Shown here one piece after another: positions 4,511-55,485 of a stretch of 64,000 nucleotides of DNA. The stretch lies in NCBI RefSeq assembly GCF_000741295.1, contig NZ_JGZG01000005.1, positions 248,001 to 312,000 on the forward strand. The letters are read 5' to 3'. The translations under genes and the position numbers were made by a program. Each line of letters begins with the position of its first letter. Within the stretch, counting starts at the first letter, position 1. Origin of the DNA: Bifidobacterium pseudolongum subsp. globosum. GTDB taxonomy: Bacteria; Actinomycetota; Actinomycetes; Actinomycetales; Bifidobacteriaceae. The notes beneath the pieces are model-generated. The model did no database searches and had not been told where the DNA came from. It saw nothing but the letters and a program-made list of their open reading frames with translations.

Positions 4511-4957
4511 TCATCCGACAGGACATTCCGCCTTTCTCATATCCTCGATGATGTCCCACACCGTCTGATACCGGTCCGCGGAGTTGGTGGCCGAGCATTT
4601 CTGGATGATGGAACCCAGCCGCGATCCATCGGTGACAAGGTTCTCCTTGCCAGTGAGGATGTAGTTGAGAATGAAACCAATCGAATATATGTCGTTGACC
4701 GGCTTGAAATCCCTGAACGATTTCAGGGCCGGATCTATTATGGAGCCTTTCATCGACGAGCCCGTGCTCGTGAGGTCCGAGCCCCTCTCCTTGGCAAGCC
4801 CGAAGTCGGAGACCTTGACTGCGAACGCGCCATCATCATATGTGTGTATGAGCACGTTCCCGTAGCTGAGGTCGCGGTGGCACACGCCGCGCTTGTGCAG
4901 GAAGTTCATCGCGTACAGGAACCGCATCGCCATCTTGCGGCGGACCCAAAGGGACAT
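4511..4957 (-). pseudogene. Ser/Thr protein kinase C-lobe fragment
   Basis: The 148 residues hold the C-lobe core of a Hanks-type kinase: catalytic loop CHRDLSYGNVL, magnesium loop SDFGLAKERG, and a later DIYSIGFILNYILTGK (subdomain IX). The glycine-rich loop, the ATP-anchoring lysine and the rest of the N-lobe are missing, so it cannot bind ATP normally. Upstream the frame stays open about 60 bp to a stop without any N-lobe. No membrane segment or PASTA domain follows. It is probably a cut remnant at the edge of the defence block; some intact stand-alone kinases of this type work in phage defence. Confidence 0.75.
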
Positions 4958-5018
4958 CTTCGCATTGAGCCCGAACGGCCGATGCCCCCTATTCCCAGGG
5001 CGCTCCGTGCCGCCGCGT

Positions 5019-5024
5019 TATAAT
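5019..5024 (+). promoter_or_regulatory. Consensus -10 (TATAAT) upstream of the defence block
   Basis: A perfect TATAAT lies 45-50 bp before the start of the ribbon-helix-helix gene, at the head of the rightward gene series. No good -35 hexamer at 16-18 bp spacing is visible. It is the best promoter candidate for the 5.07-17.02 kb operon. Confidence 0.45.
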
Positions 5025-5068
5025 GCTGCAGACGCATTTGTATTGCATTTCGAGCGATGGGAGCGCAG

Positions 5069-5281
5069 ATGCCTGACAGCTACAAGGAGCTCATCAAGGG
5101 CAACCCCGACGAGACCGAGATCAGAAGCTTCCTGGTGGACGGCGACCAAGTCTCCGTGACCCTGCGCATTCCCGACACCCTGCGTGACGCGGCCAAGGAG
5201 GAGGCGGCCCTGCGGGGCATGAGCTTCTCCGCCTTCGTGCGCACGCGCATGATCGAAGAGCTCGCGAAGAAGGGACGATAG
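5069..5281 (+). CDS. Small ribbon-helix-helix (CopG/Arc-type) protein
   Basis: A 70-residue protein whose C-terminal half fits a ribbon-helix-helix fold: a strand (VSVTLRIPDTL), helix A (RDAAKEEAALRG) and helix B (SFSAFVRTRMIEELAKK). Such proteins are DNA-binding dimers, acting as operon repressors or antitoxins. I start it at the ATG at 5069 because GGAG lies just upstream; the in-frame ATG at 5057 has no ribosome site. It is the first gene of the defence block, 3 nt before the methyltransferase. The sensible inference is autoregulation of the R-M genes, in the style of a controller protein, rather than a toxin-antitoxin pair, since no toxin-sized gene is adjacent. Confidence 0.7.
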   Translation: MPDSYKELIKGNPDETEIRSFLVDGDQVSVTLRIPDTLRDAAKEEAALRGMSFSAFVRTRMIEELAKKGR

Positions 5282-5284
5282 CCC

Positions 5285-7411
5285 GTGACCGAGCCAATCC
5301 ACGACATCTCGGTCGAAGGCTTCATAGAATCCTTCGACCGACGATACCCGACTTTCATTCTCAAGACGTTGCTGCGCGACCGCACGACGGGGCGCAACAT
5401 CATATGGGCCGACAACGAATACGAGGCCCTGGGCGACGGCTACATGGGCGATGACGAGATAACCGTCGAGAAGATCACGGGCATGAACTCCGGCGTCATC
5501 AAGCCGCGTATCGCCAAGGAGCAGGAGAAGCAATCCCAGCGCACCAAGAGCCGCGCCGAGGTGTTCACCCCGTCATGGCTGTGCAACCAGATGAACAACG
5601 ACTTGGACGAGGCATGGTTCAGCCGGCGCGATGTCTTCAACACCGAGATCGTTGCGGATGGTGGCGCCAAGACGTGGGTATCCACTAACGAGCCGATTGC
5701 GTTTCCTAGGTCGAAGGGGCACGGTTGGCATGCCTATGTTGAGGCACCGCGGCTCGAAATCACGTGCGGCGAGGCACCTTTCGTGTGCTCTCGCTACGAT
5801 GCTGTTACAGGAGACGAACTGTCCGTTTCCGAGCGCGTTGGTTTCCTCGATCGCAAACTGCGTGTGGTGACCGAGAAGACCAAAACTCGCAAGGAGTGGG
5901 TACGTCGAGCCCTCGATGCGCTGCGTGCGACATATGGCTTTGAGTATCAGGGCGACAATCTCCTCATTGCGCGCATTAACGTGCTCGAGACGTTTGCCGA
6001 GCATCTCCGCGACCGCTGGGGATCGGACCCCGAGCAGGGAGAGCTCGAGCAGGCGGCGTGGATCGTCTCCTGGAACTTCTGGCAGATGAACGGCTTCACC
6101 GACGCCGTGCCCACCAACAAGATGGGCGCAGAGGTGGAGTCGACCCTGGGGACGTTCGAGGAGCCCGAGCCGGAACCGATACAACCGTCGCTTTTCGACC
6201 TGTTCGACGACGTATTCCCCGACAAGACAACCGAAGAAACCAAGGAAGAGGAGCCAAGGGAAACAGTTCCCCTCTGCGTGATATACGACTGGCAGAACGG
6301 CGAGCCCTTCGAGTTCGCCACATTGAAAGGCAAGGCAGCGAATATGGGAAAGAAGTTCTATGCGGTAATCGGCAATCCACCCTACCAGCTTTCAGTTCCT
6401 GAATCAGATTCCGGCAATAAGACCTACGCACGGCCCATTTACCACGAGTTCATGGACTCAGCGTTCAAGGTTTCCAATAAAGTTGAGCTTATTACTCCCG
6501 CTAGATTCCTATTTGATGCTGGCTCAACCCCAAAAGCCTGGAACAGGAAGATGCTCAACGACTCCCATTTCAAAGTGATGGGCTATAAAGCAGATGCATC
6601 AAGCGTTTTTCCGAATACCGACATCAAGGGCGGTGTTGCCGTTACCTATCGAGATGCCGATCGGGATTTCGGTGCAATAGAAGTGTTCACGCATTTCGAT
6701 GAGCTTCGCACCATCAAAGAGAAGGTTGTAAAACATGGCATCCAACCCCTCGGCGATATCATCTTCGCGGCCGATAGCTACCACTTCACTGAAGCCATGC
6801 ACGAAGACCATCCCGAGATTCGTTATGTTGACGACGACCATGGTCTATTGAGCAAGAACCACGACTATGACCTTAAGACAAACGTTCTCGACAACCTTAA
6901 CAATGTAGTTTTCTTTGACGAGATGCCTGGCGACGGAGATAGTTACATCAGAATCTTTGGCAGAGGTCGCGGCGGAAGAGCTTACAAGTTCATTTCTGCC
7001 AGATATATCGCTCCGCATCCCAACCTTGACAAGTGGAAAGTAATCGTTCCAAAGGCTAATGGCTCGGGAGCGCTTGGAGAAGTGCTTTCCACGCCCTTAA
7101 TAGGGCAGCCCTTAATAGGGCATACGCAGTCCTTCATGAGCATTGGCAGTTTCGACTCCGAAGCGGAAGCCTCGGCTCTTCTCAAATACATAAAATCGAA
7201 GTTCGCTCGAGCTATGCTCGGAATCTTGAAGATTACGCAAGATAATCCCGCTTCAAAATGGAAGTATGTCCCCCTACAGGACTTCACTTCCGCCTCCGAC
7301 ATTGACTGGTCGCAGTCCGTGGCCGACATCGACCGTCAGCTCTATGCGAAATACGGTCTTAACGATGAGGAAATCACGTTCATCGAATCCCATGTGAAGG
7401 AGATGGACTAG
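5285..7411 (+). CDS. Eco57I-class restriction-modification adenine methyltransferase (708 aa)
   Basis: A large N6-adenine methyltransferase-type protein. A motif-X-like RAEVFTPSWLCNQMN is at 91-104. LEITCGEAPFV at 157-167 takes the place of SAM-binding motif I, followed by VGFLDRKLRVV and YGFEYQGDNLLIARINVLETF. The catalytic NPPY is at 364-367. The C-terminal half (TRD-like, ending DIDWSQSVADID) is visibly more AT-rich between about 6350 and 7300 than the rest. A 15-nt sequence is tandemly repeated at 7093-7122. Start is GTG at 5285, 3 nt after the previous stop. It probably protects host DNA against the helicase/nuclease encoded 2 nt downstream; target sequence unknown. Confidence 0.85.
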   Translation: MTEPIHDISVEGFIESFDRRYPTFILKTLLRDRTTGRNIIWADNEYEALGDGYMGDDEITVEKITGMNSGVIKPRIAKEQEKQSQRTKSRAEVFTPSWLCNQMNNDLDEAWFSRRDVFNTEIVADGGAKTWVSTNEPIAFPRSKGHGWHAYVEAPRLEITCGEAPFVCSRYDAVTGDELSVSERVGFLDRKLRVVTEKTKTRKEWVRRALDALRATYGFEYQGDNLLIARINVLETFAEHLRDRWGSDPEQGELEQAAWIVSWNFWQMNGFTDAVPTNKMGAEVESTLGTFEEPEPEPIQPSLFDLFDDVFPDKTTEETKEEEPRETVPLCVIYDWQNGEPFEFATLKGKAANMGKKFYAVIGNPPYQLSVPESDSGNKTYARPIYHEFMDSAFKVSNKVELITPARFLFDAGSTPKAWNRKMLNDSHFKVMGYKADASSVFPNTDIKGGVAVTYRDADRDFGAIEVFTHFDELRTIKEKVVKHGIQPLGDIIFAADSYHFTEAMHEDHPEIRYVDDDHGLLSKNHDYDLKTNVLDNLNNVVFFDEMPGDGDSYIRIFGRGRGGRAYKFISARYIAPHPNLDKWKVIVPKANGSGALGEVLSTPLIGQPLIGHTQSFMSIGSFDSEAEASALLKYIKSKFARAMLGILKITQDNPASKWKYVPLQDFTSASDIDWSQSVADIDRQLYAKYGLNDEEITFIESHVKEMD

Positions 7412-7413
7412 CC

Positions 7414-10400
7414 ATGGCGGGCATCGACATCTCCAAAATCATCAAGTCCACCGCTCCCGCGGTTCCGCAGATCTACGCCTACACCACACCCGAGATCGCC
7501 CGCCATAACGGTTGGACCAAGATCGGCTACACCGAACAGGACGTGCGCGAGCGCATCAAGCAGCAGACGCACACCGCCGACGTTCAGTGGCACCTGGAGT
7601 GGAGCGGCAACGCCACGTGGGAGCACCGCGCGGGCACGTTCCACGACACGGACTTCCACGCCTACCTCGAGAAGCAGGGCGTCAAGCGCGAACCAAAGAC
7701 GGAATGGTTCAAGATCAGCGGCGAGGAGTCGCACCAGCAGTTCTACCGGTTCCGCGACACCGACGGCGTGCTGGATGCGCCCGGCGCCGCCTCCTACACC
7801 CTGCGCGCCGAGCAGCAGCGCGCCGTGGAACAGACGGGCGCCTTCGCCCGCGCCCATTGGGACGAGGACGGCGCGAGCGGCGGCGAATTCCTGTGGAACG
7901 CTAAGCCTCGCTTTGGCAAGACGCTCACCGCCTACGACCTGTGCCGCAGCATCGGCGCGCAGAAGGTGCTCATCGTCACCAACCGCCCCGCCATCGCCAA
8001 CTCCTGGTACGACGACTACGTGAAGTTCGTCGGAGTGGAGGGCGGCTACCGCTTCATCAGCGGCGTGGACGCACTGGCCGGCAAGCCCTACTGCCTCAGC
8101 CGCGAGGAGTACCTTCGCGCCATCCACAACGACCCGGAGGGCCCCAAGGGGTTCATCGAGTTCGTGAGCCTTCAGGACCTCAAAGGCTCCATCCACTTCG
8201 GCGGCGTGTACCGGAAGCTCGACGAGGTTGCCGACCTCACCTGGGACGTGCTCATCATCGACGAGGCACACGAGGGCGTGGACACCTTCAAGACCGACGT
8301 GGCGTTCGACCACATCAAGCGCCGCTTCACGTTGCACCTCTCCGGCACGCCCTTCAAGGCCATCGCAAACGAGAAGTTCGCCGACGACGCCATCTACAAC
8401 TGGACTTACGCCGACGAGCAGCAGGCCAAACGCGACTGGCCCGCCGACTCCGAGCAGCCGAACCCCTACGCCAACCTCCCCAAGCTCAACCTGCTCACCT
8501 ACCAGATGAGCGACATCGTCGAGCAGGAGGCCCGCGGCGGCATGGAGATCGACGGTGAGCAGACCGAGTTCGCCTTCGACCTCAACGAGTTCTTCTCGAC
8601 CAAGCAGAACGGCGGCTTCGTGCATGACGCCGACGTGGACAAGTTCCTCGACGCGCTCACCACGCAGGAGAAGTTCCCGTTCTCGACGCCCGAACTGCGC
8701 GACGAGCTGCGCCACACGTTCTGGATGCTCAACCGCGTCGACTCCGCCCGCGCCCTCGCCAAGAAGCTGCAGGCGCACCCCGTCTTTAAGGATTACGAGG
8801 TGGTACTCGCTGCTGGCGACGGCAAGATCGACGCCGACGACGAGAACGAGAAGTCGCTCGACAAGGTGCGCCGCGCGATCAAGGACCACGACAGGACCAT
8901 CACCCTTTCGGTCGGTCAGCTCACCACGGGCGTGACCGTGCCGGAGTGGACCGCCGTGCTCATGCTCTCGAACATGGCGAGCCCCGCGCTGTACATGCAG
9001 GCGGCCTTCCGCAGCCAGAACCCGTGCCTGTTCGACTTGGGCGGCGGCAACTACGCGCGCAAGGAGAACGCCTACGTCTTCGACTTCGACCCGGCGCGCA
9101 CGCTCACCATCTTCGAGCAGTTTGCCAACGACCTGTACGGAGAGACCGCGCGCGGCGGCGGAGACGTGGAGACGCGCGAGCGCCACATCCGCCAGCTGCT
9201 GAACTTCTTCCCCGTCTATGGCGAGGACGATGAGGGCCAGATGGTCGAGCTCGATGCCGAGCAGGTGCTCAGCGTGCCGAGGCGCATCCACGCCCGCGAG
9301 GTGGTCAAGCGCGGCTTCATGAGCAACTTCCTGTTCCAGAACATCGCGAGTGTCTTCCACGCGCCGACAGAGGTCGTGGAGATCATCCAGCGCTTCGACC
9401 CCTACGAGCAGGGCAAGGCGCAAAACGCCGAGAAGAACAAGGTCGCGATCGACGAAGGCACGGCCGACGAGCTCTCCATCAACGACAAGGGCGAGGTGGA
9501 GATTCCTGACAAGCAAGTCGTCGGCAAGGCGGCGGACATCTTCGGGCCGAAGGTCTACGGCGACATCGCCGTCGAATTCTCAAACCATGTGGACGACATC
9601 GCGAAGGCGCACGAGGCCAATGACGACGACCGGGCGATGCTCTACAACCTCAAGGAGGCCTTCAAGCAGAGCGTGACCGCTCCTTTGGTGCAGGCCGCCA
9701 AGGAGAGCTACGGCAGCGAGCTCAAGCCGCGCCAGCAGCAGCAGATCGAACGCAAGGTCCAGGCCGACGCCGACATCCAGCTCAACCGCCAGGTCGGCGA
9801 CTACCAGATTCAGGCGCGCCGCATCGAGCAGTCGCGCAAGGACGAGCTCAAGGCGGCGACAAGCGAGACCGAGCGCGCCGAGGTGAACCAACGGCATGAC
9901 GAGCAGAAGGCCGAGGCGTTCCAGGCGCTCGCCCAGAAGCTCGAGGACTCCCGCGAGGAGCTCGTGCAGAGCGCCGGCGAGACCGTGGTGCGCGAGGTGG
10001 AGACCGCCAAGAAGGAGGAAGAGAAGCAGGGCATCGAGGACAAGGTGCGTGCCCACCTGCGTGGCTTCTCTCGCACCATCCCGTCGTTCCTCATGGCATA
10101 TGGCGAAGAGGGCACGACACTCGCGAACTTCGACACGGTGATTCCCGCCGACGTCTTCCTGGACGTCACGAGCATCACCGTGGACGAGTTCCGCTTCCTG
10201 CGCGATGGCGGTGACTACATCGACGCCGAGACCGGCGAGGTTAAGCACTTCGTCGGGCACCTCTTCGACGAGGTGGTGTTCAACGACTCCGTGAGCGAGT
10301 TCGTCAAGCTGCGCGAGCGCCTGGCCAACTACTTCGACGAGTCCCAGGTGGAGGACATCTTCGACTACGTGCCGCCTCAGAAGACCAACCAGATTTTCAC

Positions 10401-10797
10401 GCCGCGCAACGTCGTGGTCGAGATGGTGGACCTCTTCGAGAAGGAGAACCCGGGCTGCTTCGACGACCCGAGCCACACCTTCGCCGACCTGTACATGAAG
10501 TCGGGTCTCTACATCACCGAGATCATCAAGCGCCTGTACCGAAGCGAGGGCATGAAGGCCGCCTTCCCGGACGACCGCGAGCGGCTGGACCACATCCTGG
10601 AGCGCCAGGTGTTCGGCATCGCGCCCACCAAGATCATCTACGAGATCGCCACCCACTTCATCCTGGGTTTCCACGACGAGGTCGGCCAGGGATGCGACTC
10701 GAACTTCGAGCTTGCGGACTCCGCGGAGCTTGCCAAGGAGGATACGCTGGACGCCTACGTCGAGCGCGTCTTCGGGCCCAAGCTGGGCGAGGCGTAG
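7414..10797 (+). CDS. GIY-YIG nuclease-DEAH helicase fusion, restriction subunit (1127 aa)
   Basis: Residues 18-110 look like a GIY-YIG/T5orf172 nuclease domain (IYAYTTPE, then WTKIGYTEQDVRERI). An SF2 helicase follows: Walker A PRFGKT at 165-170, DEAH at 283-286, SGTPFK at 310-315, and a second RecA lobe to about 580 (SVGQLTTGVTVPEW). Residues 770-860 are charged and probably coiled coil. The C-terminus resembles a methyltransferase motif-X/I region (NQIFTPRNVVVEMVDLF, then DLYMKSGLYITEIIKRL) in which the usual DPACGSG is degenerate, suggesting a DNA- or partner-binding role. AAGGAG precedes the ATG at 7414. It is probably the DNA-translocating and cutting partner of the upstream methyltransferase. 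Confidence 0.85.
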   Translation: MAGIDISKIIKSTAPAVPQIYAYTTPEIARHNGWTKIGYTEQDVRERIKQQTHTADVQWHLEWSGNATWEHRAGTFHDTDFHAYLEKQGVKREPKTEWFKISGEESHQQFYRFRDTDGVLDAPGAASYTLRAEQQRAVEQTGAFARAHWDEDGASGGEFLWNAKPRFGKTLTAYDLCRSIGAQKVLIVTNRPAIANSWYDDYVKFVGVEGGYRFISGVDALAGKPYCLSREEYLRAIHNDPEGPKGFIEFVSLQDLKGSIHFGGVYRKLDEVADLTWDVLIIDEAHEGVDTFKTDVAFDHIKRRFTLHLSGTPFKAIANEKFADDAIYNWTYADEQQAKRDWPADSEQPNPYANLPKLNLLTYQMSDIVEQEARGGMEIDGEQTEFAFDLNEFFSTKQNGGFVHDADVDKFLDALTTQEKFPFSTPELRDELRHTFWMLNRVDSARALAKKLQAHPVFKDYEVVLAAGDGKIDADDENEKSLDKVRRAIKDHDRTITLSVGQLTTGVTVPEWTAVLMLSNMASPALYMQAAFRSQNPCLFDLGGGNYARKENAYVFDFDPARTLTIFEQFANDLYGETARGGGDVETRERHIRQLLNFFPVYGEDDEGQMVELDAEQVLSVPRRIHAREVVKRGFMSNFLFQNIASVFHAPTEVVEIIQRFDPYEQGKAQNAEKNKVAIDEGTADELSINDKGEVEIPDKQVVGKAADIFGPKVYGDIAVEFSNHVDDIAKAHEANDDDRAMLYNLKEAFKQSVTAPLVQAAKESYGSELKPRQQQQIERKVQADADIQLNRQVGDYQIQARRIEQSRKDELKAATSETERAEVNQRHDEQKAEAFQALAQKLEDSREELVQSAGETVVREVETAKKEEEKQGIEDKVRAHLRGFSRTIPSFLMAYGEEGTTLANFDTVIPADVFLDVTSITVDEFRFLRDGGDYIDAETGEVKHFVGHLFDEVVFNDSVSEFVKLRERLANYFDESQVEDIFDYVPPQKTNQIFTPRNVVVEMVDLFEKENPGCFDDPSHTFADLYMKSGLYITEIIKRLYRSEGMKAAFPDDRERLDHILERQVFGIAPTKIIYEIATHFILGFHDEVGQGCDSNFELADSAELAKEDTLDAYVERVFGPKLGEA

Positions 10798-10800
10798 CGC

Positions 10801-12114
10801 GTGGCGGAAGTAGTCGACAGCCGGCAGGACGAGCGCGCGCAGGCGGCGCGCGAGGCGGCGGATGCTGTGCGGAGCGACGGCACCGAGCTGTGCGCCCGCC
10901 TAGTCTTCCGCGCCTCGCGCAACGAGCTGAGGCGCGCGGGAATCGCCACACCCGCCGCTCTCTACGATGAGCTGAAGCAGGTCTTCTGGAACGCGGACGA
11001 GGGCGTCACCCTGGGCGACCACCTCTCCGTCGGGTTCGGCAAGGTCGACCGCCGCCGCCAGGTGCGTGCCTTCGCCGAGTGCCATGCGGACGAGCCCAGG
11101 AACGTCGTAGCGAAAGCATATGAGCGCGAATACGGCTTCAGCGCGGGCATCGCCGCGATATGGCTCGACCTATTCGCCGAGCCCGCGGACGTGAGCTTCT
11201 CGGAGTGGCTCGGCGTAGAGGTCGTTGAATGCCCGGCGGACGCCCAGGCCTCCCGTGCGGACGCGCCCGAGACGCGCGGCGCCGAGCGCGAGGCACCCAC
11301 CCTCGAAAGCTTCCTCGCCCGGGAGCTTGCCGGCCGCATCTGCGACGCGGAGCTCGTTCGCAGGCGCTTTGCCTTCGAGTTTCCCGACGAGCGCCCTGAA
11401 ATGCTCGACCGCGGCATCGAGGGCGCGGGCTACTACATGGACCACGGCCTGCTCTTCCGAGAAGGGAGCATCCCGAGCGACCACTTCACGCGGCTGCTGG
11501 CCGAGCATCCGTCCTTCGCGAAGGGCGACGCCGGCTTCGAGAACGCCGTGTGGCAGCATCCCTCCTTCCGCCACGTGCTGCGCCAGGCGCTTTCGGACCA
11601 CCGCGTGCTTCTCTACGAGGGCGACAGCTATATCTCGTTCGCGCGGCTGCACGACGTGCTGGGCGCGCGCATGGCGGACATCGAGTCGTACGCGCCTGCG
11701 GTGAGCGTGGACGCGCCCGAGGGCGAGCCCTTCACTGTGGCGAGCCTGCGCGCGGGCGGTGCCGTATCGCATCCGCTGTACGGGCTGGACATGCCCGACG
11801 ACTTCTACGAGGGGTTGCTCGACGCGGGCGGGCTCCTGCGCAGCTGTACGCTCGCCGGAACCAAGGTGTTCGTCGCCGGAGGCGAAGGGCGGCTTTCCGC
11901 AGCCGACCTCATCGAGTGGATCGTCTCCCAGAACGAGGGGATCGAGCGCGACGACCTGCCGAGGCTGCTCGCGAACGATCTGGGCATCACGTGCTCGGCA
12001 CCGCTCCTGACGACGACCATTTACAACTCCGACGTCTACTACGACGACATCGGGGACGCATACTACTCATCCATGGAGGCATGGAAGAAGGAGGCACGAA
12101 ATGAGCTTGCTTGA
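10801..12114 (+). CDS. Unknown 437-aa protein of the defence block
   Basis: I do not recognise a characterised family. The GTG at 10801 comes 3 nt after the helicase stop, and the gene overlaps the next start by 14 bp, so it is translationally tied to both. The N-terminal 100 residues are helical and Arg/Ala-rich. The C-terminal 80 residues (DLIEWIVSQNEGIERDDLP, later SDVYYDDIGDAYYSS) look like a small winged-helix unit, similar in pattern to HARE-HTH or sigma-like DNA-binding modules of other bacteria; this is inference from pattern only. No nuclease, ATPase or membrane motif is visible. A DNA-recognition or sensor role would suit its place, but this is not shown. Confidence 0.7.
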   Translation: MAEVVDSRQDERAQAAREAADAVRSDGTELCARLVFRASRNELRRAGIATPAALYDELKQVFWNADEGVTLGDHLSVGFGKVDRRRQVRAFAECHADEPRNVVAKAYEREYGFSAGIAAIWLDLFAEPADVSFSEWLGVEVVECPADAQASRADAPETRGAEREAPTLESFLARELAGRICDAELVRRRFAFEFPDERPEMLDRGIEGAGYYMDHGLLFREGSIPSDHFTRLLAEHPSFAKGDAGFENAVWQHPSFRHVLRQALSDHRVLLYEGDSYISFARLHDVLGARMADIESYAPAVSVDAPEGEPFTVASLRAGGAVSHPLYGLDMPDDFYEGLLDAGGLLRSCTLAGTKVFVAGGEGRLSAADLIEWIVSQNEGIERDDLPRLLANDLGITCSAPLLTTTIYNSDVYYDDIGDAYYSSMEAWKKEARNELA

Positions 12115-13312
12115 GGAAGGGATCGCGACCGGCAACGTCCTGCCGACGGGTCGCAAGGAGAAGCACTCCATCGACAACGTGACGCGCGACTTCGACATCT
12201 ACCGTATCAAGTGCGACCTTCTGTTCTACAACGACCAGAACGACCGCATCGCCACTTGGGTGAGCGAGTACAACTCCGCGCAGGGCGCGGACCTGCTCGC
12301 CCTCGGACGCGACGAGTACAACGGCGTCATCGAGGACTTCATCGTCGAGAGCAACCCCGGAGCGCTCAGGAAGACCGAGAAGAGCATAGCGCTTCGCGGC
12401 CAACTTAGGCCGGGCATCGTGCTCAATGACGGACGCGTCATTGACGGCAATCGACGCCTGACCTGCGTCCGCCGCCTTGCGAGGGCGAACAACGAAGCGG
12501 GCTGGTTCGAGGCCGCCATTCTCGACGACGCCACCGGCAGCGACCCTAAGCGCATCAAGCTGCTCGAGCTCGCCATCCAGATCGGCGAAGAGGAGAAGGT
12601 GGCGTACGACCCCGTCGACCGACTCGTCGGTGTATACCGCGACGTGGTGAAGAACCACCTCATCACCCCTGCGGAATACGGCAACGCGACGGGCATGACC
12701 GAAGCCGAGGTGAGAAAGCTCGTCGACCGCGCCCAGTACATGGAGGAGTTCCTCGAATTCTGTCAGGCTCCCGAGCAATACCACCTCGCCCGCGCCCTCA
12801 AAGTCGACGGCCCCTTGGGCGAGTTCAGCCGCGTGTTGAAGAAGTACGACAGCAGGCGCGACAAGCAGCTCGTCAAACAGCTTATGTTCGCCAACATGGT
12901 GGTGCAGCCCGAAGGCGACATCACCCGATACGTGAGAGACTTCGGCAGCGTGGCAGGCACGAACGCAGAGGCCGACTTCAAGGCCGCCGAACTGCAGGCC
13001 ATGTCCGAACTCCTCGAGAAGATGGGTCCCGACGCCCTCACGCGCGAGAAGGTGAGCGAGCTGCGCTCGGACGCCAATCTCGTCAACGGCTTCCAGCGTG
13101 CCGGTGACCGTGCAAGGGAAACCGTGCGACGCGTCAAGCTCATGGACACGCCCGCCAAGAAATCCGCCGACTGCCTCTCCGAGCTCGAGAAGATCCTTCC
13201 CGAGATGCTCGACGTGCTGGGGCACGACGAGCTCGAGAGGGTGCGCCGCAACCTCGTGGCCGTCGCCGACAAGGTGGAAGAGCTGATCGGTGAGATCGAT
13301 GAGCGCGCCTAG
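12101..13312 (+). CDS. ParB/Srx-fold protein (DndB-like core motif), 403 aa
   Basis: The only clear signature is a ParB-type core at 104-122: PGIVLNDGRVIDGNRRLTC, with the DGNRR signature of ParB-like nuclease/NTPase domains. After it come long helical stretches, a possible HTH near 230 (TGMTEAEVRKLVDRAQ) and a charged C-terminal coiled region. It lacks the centromere-binding features and ParA partner of true chromosome ParB. It overlaps the preceding gene by 14 bp and the following helicase gene by 14 bp, so the three are co-translated. ParB-fold proteins recur in defence operons (DndB, DUF262), which supports a DNA-recognition or regulatory role here. Confidence 0.72.
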   Translation: MSLLEEGIATGNVLPTGRKEKHSIDNVTRDFDIYRIKCDLLFYNDQNDRIATWVSEYNSAQGADLLALGRDEYNGVIEDFIVESNPGALRKTEKSIALRGQLRPGIVLNDGRVIDGNRRLTCVRRLARANNEAGWFEAAILDDATGSDPKRIKLLELAIQIGEEEKVAYDPVDRLVGVYRDVVKNHLITPAEYGNATGMTEAEVRKLVDRAQYMEEFLEFCQAPEQYHLARALKVDGPLGEFSRVLKKYDSRRDKQLVKQLMFANMVVQPEGDITRYVRDFGSVAGTNAEADFKAAELQAMSELLEKMGPDALTREKVSELRSDANLVNGFQRAGDRARETVRRVKLMDTPAKKSADCLSELEKILPEMLDVLGHDELERVRRNLVAVADKVEELIGEIDERA

Positions 13313-15242
13313 GGTCGTCGTCTGCTACGACGAGGCGCGCCCCGGCATGTACCTGCGCATCGAAGGGCAAGACGTCGCCACGTTCATGACCTCGGCGGCA
13401 TGGCGCGCCTGGCTGTACTACCCGGCGAGCGCCGTCGACGGCACCGACCGCGACCGCATCCTGCTCGATGGCGGCATGGGCTTGCGCGAGTGCCAGGACA
13501 TGCTAGAGGCGATCATGGAGGCCGACGGCCACGGCGTCGAGATCGCGGTGGACCCAAGCTTCGACGCCTTCGTGAACGCTGGCGAGACCTACATCCGCGA
13601 GCGCTCCGAGGTGGGCTTGGCCATCAAGTCGCAGACCGCCGAGGGCATCGCCGACGACCCCCAGCTGGGGCCGCGCTTCCGGGAGTTCCGCGACGTGGTG
13701 AACGCATCGATGGTGCGCCCCCTGCGCGACCGGCAGATGCTCGACGCCTTCTTCATGGCGACGGTTGGGCGCGCAGCGGACTTCTCGGTGCCCGGAGCCG
13801 GCAAGACCGCGACGGTACTCGGCGTGTTCGCCTACCTGCGCCACTTGGGGTTCGCGCGCCGCATCGTGGTGATTTGCCCCAAGAACGGCTTCGAATCGTG
13901 GGAGAAGGAATGGGTTGCCACCTTCGGCGAGAAGCTGCCTTTGAGCTGCTTCTCGCTGGGAGACCCCGCCATAGCGGCAATGTCGACCGAGCGCAGGCGA
14001 AACGCGCTGTCGCTCGACAGCGGCGCATGCAACCTGTTCACGTTCAACTACGAGTCGCTCTCGGGCTACGTGCGGGAGCTGCACGCCATCATCCCCGACC
14101 AGACCCTGCTCGTCTTCGACGAGGTGCACCGGGTGAAGGCCATCGGCGGCAGGCGCGCGGAAGCCGCGCTCGAGGCGGCCGACGGCGCTAAGTTCGTGAT
14201 CGCCCTTACGGGAACGCCCATCCCGAACACCTACCAGGACATCTACAACCTGCTGCACATCCTGTACCCCGATGACTATGACACGTTCTTCGGCTACGAA
14301 CCGGGCGAGCTCCGCGCGCCCGATGCAGACCTCCAGGCAAGCCTCAACGACAGCCTGGCACCCTTCTTCTGCCGAACGAACAAGGACGAGCTCGGCGTGC
14401 CGCGCCCGGAGCCCGACGAGATTGTAGAGATCGAAGCGACGCCCGACGAGGACACGCTGCTGCGCGTCCTGTACGCGTCTTGCCCCAACGCGCTCGCGAG
14501 GATCATACGCACCCTGCAGCTCGAGAGCGATCCCGAGATGCTTTGCTCAGCCGTGGACCCAGGCGACCTCGAGTACGTGCTCGACCAGGTCGGCGACGAC
14601 TACTCGGATATCGACTACGTCGACTTCTCTCAGACGTTCTACGAGGCCATCGAGCGAAGCCGCCCGAGCTCGAAGCTCGTGGCGTGCGAGCGGCTCGTGG
14701 AGCGCATCGTCGCCGAAGGCCGCCCCGTCATAGTATGGTGCATCTTCGTCCGCAGCATCGCCAACCTCCGCCGCGACCTCGCCGCCATGGGGATTCCGGC
14801 AGAGGCGATCTACGGCGCCACGCCACAGGAAGAGAGGCGCGAGATTCTGAACGACTTCCGCGCGGGGCGCTTCAGGGTGCTCGTGACCAACCCGCAGACG
14901 CTTGCCGAGTCGGTCTCCCTGCACAGCGTCTGCCACGACGCGGTGTATTTCGAGTACAGCTATAACCTGGTGCACCTGCTGCAGTCGAAAGACCGCATAC
15001 ACCGCCTTGGCCTGCCCGACAATCAGAAGACGCGCTACTACTTCATGCGCGAGAAGTTCATGCGCGACGGCAGGGAGCTATCCCTCGACGCGGTGATCTA
15101 CAATCGCTTGAAGGAGAAGGAGCAGACGATGCTCGACGCCATCGACCGCGGCTGCCTCGAGGGCGGCCACCTCGATGACGAGGACCTGCGCATCATCTTC
15201 GAGCGCCTGCTGGGAGAAGATGCCAAGAGCCTGGAATACTAA
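13299..15242 (+). CDS. SNF2-type DEAD/DEAH-box helicase, 647 aa
   Basis: A superfamily-2 ATPase of the SNF2 class. Walker A PGAGKT is at 165-170, DEVH at 274-277, and TGTPIPN at 304-310. The second lobe shows VTNPQTLAESVSLH and the arginine-finger box LLQSKDRIHRLG characteristic of SNF2 translocases. About 150 N-terminal residues have no recognised domain and may contact the ParB-like partner. I start it at the ATG at 13299, preceded by GGTGAG and overlapping the upstream stop; an in-frame GTG at 13290 is possible. No nuclease domain is fused, so it presumably translocates DNA for another subunit of the block. Confidence 0.85.
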   Translation: MSAPRVVVCYDEARPGMYLRIEGQDVATFMTSAAWRAWLYYPASAVDGTDRDRILLDGGMGLRECQDMLEAIMEADGHGVEIAVDPSFDAFVNAGETYIRERSEVGLAIKSQTAEGIADDPQLGPRFREFRDVVNASMVRPLRDRQMLDAFFMATVGRAADFSVPGAGKTATVLGVFAYLRHLGFARRIVVICPKNGFESWEKEWVATFGEKLPLSCFSLGDPAIAAMSTERRRNALSLDSGACNLFTFNYESLSGYVRELHAIIPDQTLLVFDEVHRVKAIGGRRAEAALEAADGAKFVIALTGTPIPNTYQDIYNLLHILYPDDYDTFFGYEPGELRAPDADLQASLNDSLAPFFCRTNKDELGVPRPEPDEIVEIEATPDEDTLLRVLYASCPNALARIIRTLQLESDPEMLCSAVDPGDLEYVLDQVGDDYSDIDYVDFSQTFYEAIERSRPSSKLVACERLVERIVAEGRPVIVWCIFVRSIANLRRDLAAMGIPAEAIYGATPQEERREILNDFRAGRFRVLVTNPQTLAESVSLHSVCHDAVYFEYSYNLVHLLQSKDRIHRLGLPDNQKTRYYFMREKFMRDGRELSLDAVIYNRLKEKEQTMLDAIDRGCLEGGHLDDEDLRIIFERLLGEDAKSLEY

Positions 15243-15312
15243 GAGGCCGAATGGCGCATTGACGATATTGGCTCATAAGTGATAACTGCGAAGGATAGAT
15301 AGGGCTTTAAGG

Positions 15313-17016
15313 ATGGATGCAGGAAAAGCAACGATAAGCGGCGTGTTCAACGGATCGCGCCTGCTCGAAATACCCTTCTACCAAAGGGCGTACGTCTGGG
15401 GAGAAGAGCAGTGGGAGCGCTTCCTCGGCGACATGGAGTTCGTCACCGCCTCGAAGCGGCCCTACTTCCTGGGCTCCATCATCCTGAAGCAGGAGTCTTC
15501 CGGCAATACCTGGTCGGAGGTATCCGAGGTGCGCACCGTCATCGACGGACAGCAGCGCCTCACCACCATGATTATCTTCTTCAAGGCGCTTTGCGCGAAA
15601 ATCGGCGCCGGCAAGCTGTTCGAGCGGGACTTCATCCTTGAGACCGGCGACGTCGCTCTGAGCCACGGTAGATACGATAGAGACGATTTCAAGAAGGTCG
15701 TTGATGCCAAGGGCAGCGAGCCGATTGACGGCTCGTCGGCCATCATTGGCGCCTACAACTACTTCCTCAAAAACATCGACTCGGAACAGGTCGACAGGAA
15801 CGCGATCAAGTCGAACGTTCAGTTCGTTTGCATCGATCTCACCGAGGGCGAAGACGAGCAGCAGATATTCGACACCATCAACTCGCTCGGGGTGCGCCTG
15901 ACGACGGCGGAGCTCCTCAAGAACTACTTCTTCAACCACGAGAACGAGCAGGCGTTCAAGGAGTGCTGGGAAGATGTCTTCGAGCCCACGGCGGAGAAGA
16001 GGGAATATTGGGAGCAGGAGGTCGTTACCGGGCGCATCAAGCGCACGCTCGTCGATCTGTTCTTCGACGCGTTCCTCCAGATCCTGGTTCAGAACAAGGA
16101 GCGCGGCGTCACGACCGAGGACAAGCTCTTCTATTCGCGCACGTCCAACCTCTTCCAGTCCTACAAAGACTTCATCGCCAGGTACTGCGATGGGAGCAAA
16201 GATGAGGTGCTGGGTGCCATGAAGGCCTACGCCGAGGTGTTCGAGTCCACGTTCGACCCCACCTGTTGCGACAGGAACGTCTCCTCCGCGCCGTCCGCCG
16301 AGCGCATGAACGTGCTGATATTCGGTCTTAAGAATTCGACGCTCATCCCATACGTATTGTACGTCCGCAAGAACGTGGAATCGTCGGATGAGCAGGCGAA
16401 GATCTTCGCCACGCTCGAGAGCTACATCGTCCGCCGAATGCTGGTCAGGGCGACCACCAAGAACTACAACAGGCTGTTCACCTCGCTGATCCTAAACGAG
16501 GCAAAGGACGCCGCCGCGCTGAGGACCGCGCTTGCCGCCGACGCGGAGGCGACCACCTATATGCCGAGCGACCCCGAGGTGCGCGCCGCGTTCGGCGAGT
16601 CGTGCCTGTACAACCTCCAGTCCAAAGGCGTCCTCTATCTGCTGGAAAGCGCCATCAGACCGAGCATGAGCAGCACCGCGCTTCTCGGATTCAACCAGTA
16701 CACCCTCGAGCATATGATGCCTAAAAAGTGGCGCAACAAGTGGGGAGCCCTTGATGACGAGGCTGCTACGCGAAGGGACAGGAAGCTCCTCACGTTCGGC
16801 AACCTCGCCATCATCACTCATTCGCTCAACGCCTCCATCCGCGATGCCGAGTGGGTCGTCAAGAAGCAAGGGAAAGGATATAAGGACGGTCTGGCGCTCT
16901 GCGCCGCCGGCCTCGCCACCATGGATGGCGTCCTGGAGAAGGAATCATGGGGCGAAGAGGACATCGACGAGCGCGCGGAGTGGCTTGCCGACAAGGCCCT
17001 GACCGTCTGGTCGTAG
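15313..17016 (+). CDS. GmrSD-type DUF262/DUF1524 protein (type IV restriction-like), 567 aa
   Basis: The N-terminal DUF262 domain shows IPFYQRAYVW at 20-29 and VIDGQQRLTT at 77-86, the ParB-like NTPase core of GmrS, followed by NSLGVRLTTAELLKNYFFN. The C-terminal DUF1524 domain carries the HNH-type motif EHMMPKKW at 466-473 and TFGNLAIITHSLNA. Single-chain GmrSD enzymes cut modified (for example glucosylated) DNA using NTP. All key residues are present and length is normal. It is 70 bp from the SNF2 gene, with a weak TAAGG ribosome site, so it may be transcribed with the block or be an independent defence gene sharing the island. Confidence 0.88.
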   Translation: MDAGKATISGVFNGSRLLEIPFYQRAYVWGEEQWERFLGDMEFVTASKRPYFLGSIILKQESSGNTWSEVSEVRTVIDGQQRLTTMIIFFKALCAKIGAGKLFERDFILETGDVALSHGRYDRDDFKKVVDAKGSEPIDGSSAIIGAYNYFLKNIDSEQVDRNAIKSNVQFVCIDLTEGEDEQQIFDTINSLGVRLTTAELLKNYFFNHENEQAFKECWEDVFEPTAEKREYWEQEVVTGRIKRTLVDLFFDAFLQILVQNKERGVTTEDKLFYSRTSNLFQSYKDFIARYCDGSKDEVLGAMKAYAEVFESTFDPTCCDRNVSSAPSAERMNVLIFGLKNSTLIPYVLYVRKNVESSDEQAKIFATLESYIVRRMLVRATTKNYNRLFTSLILNEAKDAAALRTALAADAEATTYMPSDPEVRAAFGESCLYNLQSKGVLYLLESAIRPSMSSTALLGFNQYTLEHMMPKKWRNKWGALDDEAATRRDRKLLTFGNLAIITHSLNASIRDAEWVVKKQGKGYKDGLALCAAGLATMDGVLEKESWGEEDIDERAEWLADKALTVWS

Positions 17017-17341
17017 CCTCTCCCGCGCCCCATCCCGGAAATGCTCACGTCGTCGTTGACGCGGGCTTCAGGTGCCTCTGGCACAGCCGGGGGCACCTTC
17101 ATTCGCGGCTCTTCCTCCGCTGGCGTATCAACCCCCTCGCCAAGCGCCAGGAAGAATCTCATAACGACTTCGATCCTCTGCTGCAGGGTCTCGCTCAGTT
17201 CTCCGTAGGAGGCAGCCAACCGCACTTCCTTGGCCAGCTCCGTCATCGAAGCCCTCAGCGCCTTCGCACGTTCACGGGGGTGCCGATCGCCTGCACCGGG
17301 CATTCTGGCCGGTCAGAACATCGTGGTGAACGGCCATCTCC
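17017..17341 (-). other. Gap between defence block and xis; possible cut minus-strand frame
   Basis: A minus-strand frame starts at ATG 17303 and stays open to 16818, running into the antisense of the DUF262 gene. Its first 90 or so residues (RERAKALRASMTELAKEVRL, then LQQRIEVVMRFFLALGEG) have a helical, MobC-like flavour and could be the start of a gene whose end was replaced when the cargo inserted. No clear ribosome site. I treat it as a possible remnant only. Confidence 0.25.
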
Positions 17342-17380: not shown

Positions 17381-17495
17381 GTCGCCGGTCGGACTCCCTG
17401 AAGGACTTCCGGCCGGCGGAGCGGGGTCGCAGCGATCCAGCCGGATGCGCCGGAGCCGCAACGCCGTTGAATCCTCGCGACGCATAGCCGCTGCT

Positions 17496-17753
17496 ATGAC
17501 GGAATCGAAGAAGACACTTGAATCCGAGGGCACTACGGCCAGACCGAAGGAAAAGCCCTACGTGCCCATCGAAAACCGCCCGCTGCTGGGTGTGGATGAA
17601 GTGGAGGCTCTTACGGGCGTTCCCGCCAAAATCATCCGGGCCAACGTGCGCAACGGACTGCTGAAGGCGTGCCTGGCGGGCAGCACGACGATGCGCATCC
17701 GACGGCGGGATTTGGACGAATGGCTTGACATGTTGCCAGCGTGGCGCGCCTAA
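17496..17753 (+). CDS. xis: Excisionase-like helix-turn-helix protein
   Basis: A small DNA-binding protein of the MerR/excisionase-like class. The HTH runs through LLGVDEVEALTGVPAKIIRANVR, followed by a wing (STTMRIRRRDLDEWL). Such proteins bend the att site and direct integrase towards excision. The ATG at 17496 gives 85 residues of typical length; the frame is open back to an ATG at 17445, but that adds only a disordered Arg/Ser segment, and neither has a clear ribosome site. It lies next to the right arm repeats and attR. With the integrase truncated it has no working partner in this window. Confidence 0.7.
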   Translation: MTESKKTLESEGTTARPKEKPYVPIENRPLLGVDEVEALTGVPAKIIRANVRNGLLKACLAGSTTMRIRRRDLDEWLDMLPAWRA

Positions 17754-54453: not shown

Positions 54454-55485
54454 GTGCTGAAAGCCACCACGACCGCGCTCAGCGAGACCTACCGTCTGGC
54501 GCTGCTGGACCTTGACGGCGTTGTCTATTACGGCAAGCAGCCGGTGCCGCACGCCAGTGCGAGCATCACCGAAGCCCAGCGGCTCGGTATGACGATCGAG
54601 TACACCACGAACAACTCCTCGCGCATGCAGGGCGTGGTGGCCGGCCAGCTCCATGGGTTCGGGCTGGATGTGCAGCCGTGGCAGGTGATCACCTCGTCGG
54701 TCGTCGCCGCCCGCATGGTGGCGCGCCATGTACCCGCGGGGGCACGCGTGCTCGTGGTGGGCGCCGACCATCTGCGTGACGAAGTGGCCAAGCAGGGCCT
54801 CGTCATCGTCGACAATGCCAAGGACGACCCCGCCGCGGTCATCCAAGGCTGGTACCCGCAGATGACATGGCAGCAGATGGCCGAAGCCGCGTATGCGGTC
54901 GAGGCGGGAGCCCGGTATTTCGTGACGAACCGTGACCCCACAATTCCCCGTGAGCAGGGCATCGCGCCGGGATGCGGTTCGATGATCCAAGCCGTCATCA
55001 ACGCCACCGGCGTCGAACCGATCGCCTCGGCGGGCAAACCCGAATCGGCGATGTATGACGAGGCGCGCATGCTCGCCGCCCATGACGGTGAGAGGATGGT
55101 GTCGGTCGCGCAGAGCCTCGCCATCGGCGACCGCTTGGACACCGACATTGAAGCGGGCAACCGCGGCGGCTATGATTCGCTGCTCGTGCTCACCGGCGTG
55201 ACCGACGAACGGCTGCTCATGTGCGCCCCGGCCGCATTGCGCCCCACGTACATCGCCCGCGACCTGCGCGGACTGAACGTGCCCCACCCGGGCGTCGAAC
55301 GGCTCGCGGACGGCGACTGGCGCTGCGGCGGCATGACCGCCACATGGCGCGACGGCGCCGTCAGTGTCAGCGACGCGACGAGCGTCGACGCGCTGCGCGC
55401 CGCATGCGCGCTCATCTGGGACCGCATGGACAACGGCATTGACACCGCGGGCATCGCCCTGCCGCAGTTCCATCTCGACGACTGA
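54454..55485 (+). CDS. HAD-IIA family phosphatase (NagD/phosphoglycolate-type)
   Basis: A 343-aa HAD phosphatase with nucleophile D19 and acid/base D21 in LLDLDGVVYYG. Motif II is TTNNSSRM, a class IIA cap follows, then the motif III Lys in SAGKPESAMYDEA and motif IV IGDRLDTDIEAGNRGG. The cap resembles NagD, AraL or phosphoglycolate phosphatases; the substrate cannot be set from sequence. The C-terminal 60 residues beyond the HAD core are specific to actinobacteria. The start is GTG 54454. It is 6 bp after the TPR gene and 9 bp before tlyA, a likely operon. Confidence 0.9.
   Translation: MLKATTTALSETYRLALLDLDGVVYYGKQPVPHASASITEAQRLGMTIEYTTNNSSRMQGVVAGQLHGFGLDVQPWQVITSSVVAARMVARHVPAGARVLVVGADHLRDEVAKQGLVIVDNAKDDPAAVIQGWYPQMTWQQMAEAAYAVEAGARYFVTNRDPTIPREQGIAPGCGSMIQAVINATGVEPIASAGKPESAMYDEARMLAAHDGERMVSVAQSLAIGDRLDTDIEAGNRGGYDSLLVLTGVTDERLLMCAPAALRPTYIARDLRGLNVPHPGVERLADGDWRCGGMTATWRDGAVSVSDATSVDALRAACALIWDRMDNGIDTAGIALPQFHLDD

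What the first reader, a model, noticed from the sequence alone, without database searches (positions are those of the whole stretch)
5057..17016. Candidate composite defence system: RHH, MTase, GIY-YIG/DEAH helicase, unknown protein, ParB-like, SNF2 helicase, GmrSD
Seven same-strand genes, six of them spaced 2-3 bp apart or overlapping by 14 bp, join a modification/restriction pair to an unknown protein, a ParB-fold protein and a SNF2 translocase, with a DUF262/DUF1524 nuclease 70 bp on. Each part is a known defence-type fold, but I know no named system (R-M types, BREX, DISARM, Dnd, Druantia, Zorya) with this gene set. The tight coupling from 5285 to 15242 suggests one complex rather than a random pile.
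Basis: partly seen in the sequence, partly recalled or inferred. Interest (0 to 1): 0.85.

Follow-up and report, generated by a model that had tools for sequence, protein, structure and literature searches.

The report
Restriction cassette with ParB–SNF2 add-on
A gut Bifidobacterium carries a 12-kb mobile cassette in which an ordinary restriction-modification pair is followed by three unnamed genes (winged-helix array, ParB-like clamp, SNF2 motor) that recur beside many different DNA-modification defences and may be an undescribed anti-phage module that plugs into other systems.

Summary
In detail: seven same-strand genes with intact motifs, tightly spaced from 5285 to 15242. The reading as one composite complex is only partly supported. 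The block has three parts. (1) RHH, MTase and GIY-YIG/ResIII helicase form a common R-M system; its helicase matched in 44 of 189 Bifidobacteriaceae genomes, and 20 such loci lack the later genes. (2) Genes 10801-15242 form a conserved module: a winged-helix-array protein (C-terminal half of a larger 'sigma-HTH' family), a ParB-fold protein and a SNF2 ATPase. ParB-SNF2 pairs with separate partners: type III Mod-Res, 5mC MTase plus MutH/Sau3AI endonuclease (SNF2 then carries a PLD domain), BREX (between pglX and pglZ) and this R-M pair; one copy follows hsdMSR; many have no methylase nearby. (3) GmrSD is optional. The block occurs in 10 actinobacterial genomes; copies 97-99.96% identical span Collinsella and Olsenella. 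One relative deleted the module but kept the R-M pair; several cassettes carry a broken MTase but an intact module. I read the module as a semi-autonomous anti-invader DNA clamp plus translocase that docks on modification systems. I found no named system with this gene set in PADLOC, NCBIfam or the papers searched. Function is untested.

The parts
5057..5281 (+). RHH/CopG-like protein, 74 aa; travels with the R-M pair (probable regulator)
   Evidence: weak CopG/DUF6290 hits; conserved upstream of the MTase in all cassette copies tested and in L123 and L124, which lack the module
5285..7411 (+). Eco57I-class N6-adenine DNA methyltransferase, 708 aa; the region about 6389-7404 is exchanged between copies (target recognition)
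   Evidence: recognition-region swap
7414..10797 (+). GIY-YIG (T5orf172) nuclease plus ResIII SF2 motor, 1127 aa
   Evidence: family-wide search
10801..12114 (+). U437: array of winged-helix units, equivalent to the C-terminal half of the SigU ('sigma factor-like HTH') family
   Evidence: profile match E 7e-41, profile positions 532-896 of 899; model pLDDT 88; weak PDB matches include multi-winged-helix proteins
12101..13312 (+). ParB-fold protein with invariant DG(N)RR box, 403 aa
13290..15242 (+). SNF2-family translocase, short form without PLD domain, 650 aa
15313..17016 (+). GmrSD-type (DUF262 plus DUF1524 HNH) endonuclease, 567 aa; optional passenger
   Evidence: absent or replaced in L026 and L027
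4960..17270 (.). limits of the block shared at about 91.7% DNA identity with Collinsella/Olsenella cassettes (5001-15244 with Paraeggerthella and Arcanobacterium)

Best explanation
The block is a mobile, layered defence cassette. Layer 1 is a two-subunit ATP-dependent R-M system: the Eco57I-class MTase carries target recognition and methylates self; the GIY-YIG/ResIII protein is the motor and nuclease; the RHH protein is a probable regulator. Layer 2 is a semi-autonomous anti-invader module, winged-helix array (U437) - ParB-like - SNF2. U437 binds DNA or adapts the module to a partner; the ParB-like protein closes as a nucleotide-controlled clamp on DNA; the SNF2 motor tracks along duplex DNA and blocks replication or transcription, or feeds the DNA to whatever nuclease the version carries (an N-terminal PLD domain, a MutH/Sau3AI endonuclease with the same U domain, a DUF3883 protein, or the partner R-M nuclease). 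Layer 3 is an optional GmrSD enzyme against modified phage DNA. Shown: gene content, folds, conserved module, switching of partners, transfer, loss of the module without loss of the R-M pair, module intact beside a broken MTase. Inferred: anti-phage activity, nucleotide binding, clamping and translocation, U437 as adaptor.
For: ParB and SNF2 genes are adjacent in nearly all non-fused members examined. 17 of 30 dereplicated ParB-SNF2 loci have modification-defence genes within 9 kb, against 0 of 10 loci of the related fused ParB type that lacks SNF2 (Fisher p = 0.002). PLD-SNF2 goes with 5mC MTase/MutH in 11 of 13 loci, short SNF2 in 1 of 17. Type III Mod-Res-ParB-SNF2 operons in four plasmids with the ParB start overlapping the Res stop, and a fifth with the same order. 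Module inside BREX between pglX and pglZ in two genomes. hsdMSR 420 bp upstream of the module in E. lactis. At least 10 changes of partner class on the ParB tree. SigU-ParB-SNF2 with no methylase found nearby, e.g. E. faecalis plasmids. G133 keeps the R-M pair at 84-90% DNA identity and a 48-bp remnant of the U437 start, but no module. MTase broken but U437, ParB and SNF2 intact in five Collinsella/Olsenella-type genomes. B. choerinum has the same module with an exchanged MTase recognition region.
Against: No activity is shown. In the R-M-coupled forms the SigU protein is shortened (window) or absent (type III) and coding regions overlap, which suggests functional coupling to the R-M enzyme rather than autonomy. 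The broken-MTase cassettes are 97-99.96% alike and lie near a tet(W)-like gene in some copies (gene identified by reading its sequence only), so recent hitchhiking could explain why the module is still intact. No nuclease domain is recognised in the window's three module proteins.
Confidence: 0.5

Rival explanations
1. The module is an obligate accessory of R-M and BREX enzymes: it boosts restriction or methylation (clears proteins, loads or recycles the enzyme) and does nothing alone.
For: ParB and SNF2 overlap or abut the partner enzyme genes in type III and Eco57I/GIY loci; SigU is lost or shortened there; distinct SNF2 forms track distinct partners; the same pair is used with several modification classes.
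Against: Several loci have no methylase found within 9 kb (unseeded MTase classes could be missed); the R-M pair lives without the module in 20 loci and survived its deletion; module genes are intact beside a broken MTase.
Confidence: 0.3
2. The module is a regulator or modulator: the sigma-like HTH/winged-helix protein, ParB fold and RapA-like SNF2 protein act on RNA polymerase or promoters to control defence genes or silence foreign transcription.
For: Sigma70 region 4 hits and a weak alpha-CTD-like hit in SigU proteins; tandem winged-helix model for U437; one BREX-linked U protein carries Trans_reg_C domains.
Against: The window's U437 lacks the sigma-like half; PLD, MutH and DUF3883 nuclease partners are unexpected for a pure regulator.
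Confidence: 0.12
3. Defence-island clustering only: unrelated defence genes that happen to be adjacent.
For: GmrSD is optional and lies near other R-M genes too; the R-M pair and the module each occur apart.
Against: Overlapping reading frames in several lineages; order and spacing kept across actinobacterial genera; 17/30 against 0/10 linkage.
Confidence: 0.08

Closest known systems
Two-subunit or split type IIG/ISP-like and type III R-M enzymes (genes 5285-10797)
   Same: SF2 ResIII motor, nuclease, N6-adenine MTase with recognition region; one PADLOC type IIG profile (PDLC03626) matches parts of both window proteins
   Different: nuclease is GIY-YIG, the enzyme is two polypeptides, and the MTase is Eco57I class and not type III Mod
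PbeABCD / CxC-ABC-DndE systems (PMC6459918, PMC10853773)
   Same: PLD plus SF2 helicase protein PbeA resembles the PLD-SNF2 protein of the 5mC branch (PADLOC 5e-67, best stretch is the PLD part); linked to DNA modification
   Different: no CxC ABC ATPase, no DndE, no phosphorothioation genes; the window SNF2 lacks the PLD part
DISARM
   Same: MTase plus SNF2 helicase in one locus; a PLD protein in the core
   Different: no DrmA, DrmB or DrmC; the SNF2 is only weakly similar to DrmD
BREX
   Same: two BREX loci carry the U-ParB-SNF2 module inside the operon
   Different: the window has no PglZ, BrxC, BrxA/B or BrxL; the 2026 BREX survey (PMC12839542) discusses GmrSD and SNF2 helicases, but no ParB-SNF2 module appears in the passages found there
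ParB-CTPase fold family (PMC12704722)
   Same: fold and invariant arginines of the nucleotide box
   Different: DGNRR instead of GERR, no ParA partner, coupled to SNF2; that survey does not contain the word SNF2
GmrSD type IV endonucleases (window 15313-17016)
   Same: DUF262 plus DUF1524/HNH in one protein
   Different: an ordinary member; its neighbours are the unusual part

Membership tests
Type III R-M | Mod of the N6_N4 MTase plus EcoP15I C-terminal type, and Res with RE_endonuc domain | tested here: not met
   window proteins hit Eco57I and T5orf172/ResIII instead; a type III partner locus does hit these families
Type IIG/ISP single-chain R-M | nuclease, motor, MTase and recognition region in one polypeptide | tested here: not met
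   two polypeptides, 5285-7411 and 7414-10797, although one PADLOC IIG profile matches parts of both
Type IV GmrSD | DUF262 (GmrSD_N) plus DUF1524 HNH (GmrSD_C) | tested here: met
   15313-17016, 9e-35 and 1.8e-17, above cut-offs
DISARM | DrmA, DrmB (DUF1998) and DrmC core | tested here: not met
   no such hits among the six large proteins
BREX | PglZ and BrxC/PglY with PglX | tested here: not met
   no such hits in the window genes; present only in other loci
Zorya | ZorA/ZorB motor proteins | tested here: not met
   only SNF2-core hits to ZorD
Dnd / Pbe | DndCDE modification genes; PbeC CxC ABC ATPase and DndE | tested here: not met
   no such hits in the window genes; only PbeA SNF2-core hits
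Druantia, Dpd and other PADLOC systems | system-specific core proteins | tested here: not met
   10801-12114 has no PADLOC hit, 12101-13312 only a weak hit (E 0.035), SNF2 only superfamily-level hits such as DpdE
ParABS partition | ParA partner and GERR box of the ParB CTPase | tested here: not met
   no ParA gene in the block; the box reads DGNRR
ParABS partition | parS sites and CTP-dependent loading | not testable with these tools
   no biochemical data; no parS search was made
U/SigU-ParB-SNF2 module (defined here) | adjacent ParB-fold and SNF2 genes with a U-domain protein or a modification enzyme upstream | tested here: met

The most novel reading that the evidence does not exclude
ParB-SNF2 with a winged-helix adaptor is an undescribed defence module found in Bacillota, Actinomycetota, Spirochaetes, Melainabacteria and, as a divergent branch, Alphaproteobacteria. 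It is a DNA clamp plus motor that works alone or plugs into type II, type III, Eco57I/GIY-YIG and BREX systems, with exchangeable nucleases and recognition subunits.
Probability: 0.4. Interest if true: 0.82.

Novelty: new variant of a known kind. Interest (0 to 1): 0.62.

Why it matters
If right, one small ParB-SNF2 core is shared by modification-based defences usually treated as separate (type II, type III, a GIY-YIG/Eco57I system and BREX). That would give a simple handle on how such systems gain a second, possibly nuclease-free arm, and a testable role for a ParB-type nucleotide clamp in immunity. It would also give a name and a prediction to genes now annotated only as hypothetical protein, sigma factor-like HTH protein and DEAD/DEAH helicase on many E. 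faecalis and lactic-acid-bacteria plasmids.

Tried and rejected
(1) P0001 as probe: 2 of 189 family genomes and 1 plasmid record only, because it is a fast-evolving fragment of a larger family; ParB was the useful probe. (2) Viral-contig scan with single-sequence ParB: nothing. Phages: four weak or partial hits. E. coli: none. (3) PbeABCD as the parent system: rejected after reading PMC6459918 and PMC10853773, since PbeB, PbeC and PbeD have no counterpart. (4) DISARM, Zorya, Dpd and BrxH hits of the SNF2 protein: superfamily-level only. (5) BREX next to the module in L042: may be plain adjacency, because a near-identical module in L037 has no BREX genes labelled nearby, so only L165 and L166 are counted as embedded. 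(6) Target-site repeats at the block edges: none of 9 bases or more found. (7) PDB sequence searches for U437, MTase, GIY-YIG helicase and ParB profile: nothing significant. (8) Pfam counts over 89 unlabelled neighbours gave no recurrent extra partner family among the 25 families listed. (10) Literature: 9 searches found no description of the module in open PMC; subscription papers and REBASE were not available.
Full report
WHAT IS THERE. Pfam names an Eco57I methylase, a T5orf172 (GIY-YIG) plus ResIII protein, a SNF2 protein and a GmrSD protein. The RHH protein and the ParB-like protein have sub-threshold hits only, and the 437-aa protein has none in Pfam, NCBIfam or PADLOC. The genes from 5285 to 15242 are spaced 2 and 3 bp or overlap by 14 and 23 bp. 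SNF2 motifs I, II, III and VI are intact.

PART 1, THE R-M PAIR. The GIY-YIG/ResIII protein matched in 44 of 189 genomes of the family, some of them by weaker or partial hits. In 20 such loci that I read, an Eco57I-type MTase lies next to it and neither U437, ParB nor SNF2 of the window family is present. The RHH gene goes with the pair: it is also in L123 and L124, which lack the module. On the tree of this protein the module-bearing copies group in one supported clade of seven, in which L123 is the one without the module; the data do not reject the six module-bearing rows as one clade (p-AU 0.23). L123 (genome G133) is 84-90% identical in DNA across the pair and still has 48 bp of the U437 start, so I infer that the module was deleted there and the pair kept. 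The simplest reading is one gain of the module by this R-M lineage and one loss.

PART 2, THE MODULE. Using the ParB-like protein as probe I found 66 plasmid records and 209 relatives in the genome collection, of which 80 were kept as loci. Neighbourhoods show a recurrent set: U/SigU protein, ParB-like, SNF2. The 437-aa protein matches the C-terminal part of the SigU profile (positions 532-896 of 899, E 7e-41); the same C-terminal domain is fused to MutH/Sau3AI-type endonucleases (E 1e-54 to 8e-59). SigU proteins of E. faecalis and E. casseliflavus plasmids carry a sigma-70 region-4 HTH in the half that the window protein lacks.

PARTNERS. (a) Eco57I plus GIY-YIG helicase: window and nine further genomes. 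(b) Type III Mod-Res: Lactococcus, Enterococcus (two), L. reuteri, and an 8.75-kb L. paracasei record whose four annotated genes are mod, res, ParB and SNF2. (c) 5mC MTase plus MutH/Sau3AI with or without Vsr: the largest group; SNF2 there has an N-terminal PLD domain in the cases scanned. (d) BREX: L165 and L166 read BrxC, PglX, U, ParB, SNF2, PglZ on one strand. (e) A DUF1156-type MTase gene 22 bp from a distant ParB-SNF2 pair (L168; sub-threshold Pfam hits). (f) hsdMSR 420 bp upstream in one E. lactis plasmid. (g) No methylase found. In Alphaproteobacteria a divergent ParB-SNF2-DUF3883 set lies near a cytosine MTase in two of three plasmids and near Vsr in one. After dereplication 17 of 30 ParB-SNF2 loci have such partners within 9 kb; the related fused ParB family without SNF2 has 0 of 10 (Fisher p = 0.002). 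PLD-SNF2 is with 5mC/MutH genes in 11 of 13 loci, short SNF2 in 1 of 17. On the ParB tree the seven partner labels need 10 changes where 6 is the least possible and shuffled labels need 22.9. Limits: the marker set was built from these loci, so unseeded MTase classes count as none, and no genome-wide background could be run.

FOLDS. The ParB-like model is confident (pLDDT 90) and its best PDB matches are ParB bound to CDP. D115, G116, R118 and R119 are invariant, N117 nearly so; canonical ParB has GERR here (established knowledge), so nucleotide binding is plausible but its kind is open. PMC12704722 reports ParB folds that bind ATP or GTP, with binding lost when the box-II arginine is changed. 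The U437 model is also confident (pLDDT 88) and shows repeated helix-helix-helix-hairpin units; its PDB matches are weak (best E 0.013) and include multi-winged-helix proteins such as UFL1, ESCRT-II and SelB.

MOBILITY AND DECAY. The block 4960-17270 is 91.7% identical to copies in Collinsella and Olsenella; Paraeggerthella (93%) and Arcanobacterium (84%) share up to the SNF2 stop at about 15244 and lack this GmrSD gene. Across copies the MTase recognition region is exchanged while the module stays the same. In five Collinsella/Olsenella-type genomes the MTase gene is broken, and in one of them the GIY-YIG helicase gene too, yet U437, ParB, SNF2 and GmrSD are intact. Those cassettes are 97-99.96% identical, so the spread is recent; a tet(W)-like gene next to one copy, identified by its sequence start only, could be the driver.

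HOW IT MOST LIKELY WORKS. Shown: a detachable three-gene module with switching partners. Inferred: U437 as DNA-binding adaptor, ParB-like protein as nucleotide-gated clamp, SNF2 as duplex translocase, with the nuclease supplied by the version or partner. Because the module is intact beside broken MTases and occurs with no methylase found nearby, I favour a semi-autonomous module (0.5) over an obligate R-M accessory (0.3). Loss or shortening of SigU in the R-M-coupled forms is the best evidence for the accessory model.

NOVELTY. The R-M pair and GmrSD are known kinds. The module matches no PADLOC or NCBIfam system, and nine full-text searches of open PMC found no description of it. I call the whole a new variant of a known kind, with a 0.4 chance that the module is a new kind of defence.

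Noticed in passing
L024, L025, L028, L157, L158 (MTase gene); L125, L126, L128, L131: The MTase gene is broken in five cassette copies, in four of them by a frame change near residues 351-365 just before NPPY; in other Bifidobacteriaceae the MTase is split into two ORFs at about the same place. Phase variation or a tolerated split is possible.
   Followed up: partly
L067-L096 (many): A related family in Clostridia and relatives: ParB of about 575 aa followed by SigU of about 980 aa and a small protein, no SNF2 and no R-M genes nearby (0 of 10). Function unknown.
   Followed up: no
L180 (L. paracasei N1115, NZ_CP007126.1): An 8.75-kb circular record whose four annotated genes are mod, res, ParB-like and SNF2; no replication gene is annotated, so it may be an assembly product.
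   Followed up: no
window 4511-4957 (-): Truncated Ser/Thr kinase fragment (148 aa, kinase profile from position 100) ending exactly at the left edge of the shared block; the block may have inserted there.
   Followed up: partly
window 17445-17753 (+): Small HTH, excisionase-like ORF just beyond the right edge of the block (by reading the translation only).
   Followed up: no
L025:1-1894 (-): Gene beginning like a tet(W)-type ribosome protection protein beside the cassette in Collinsella (identified from its N-terminal sequence only).
   Followed up: no
L042:13165-14235 (+): A 356-aa protein with weak coiled-coil-type hits between the module and BrxA; the similar module in L037 has a 322-aa protein in that place.
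   Followed up: no
window 54997-55091 (-): ARAGORN calls a tRNA-Cys with anticodon ACA; unusual and probably spurious.
   Followed up: no
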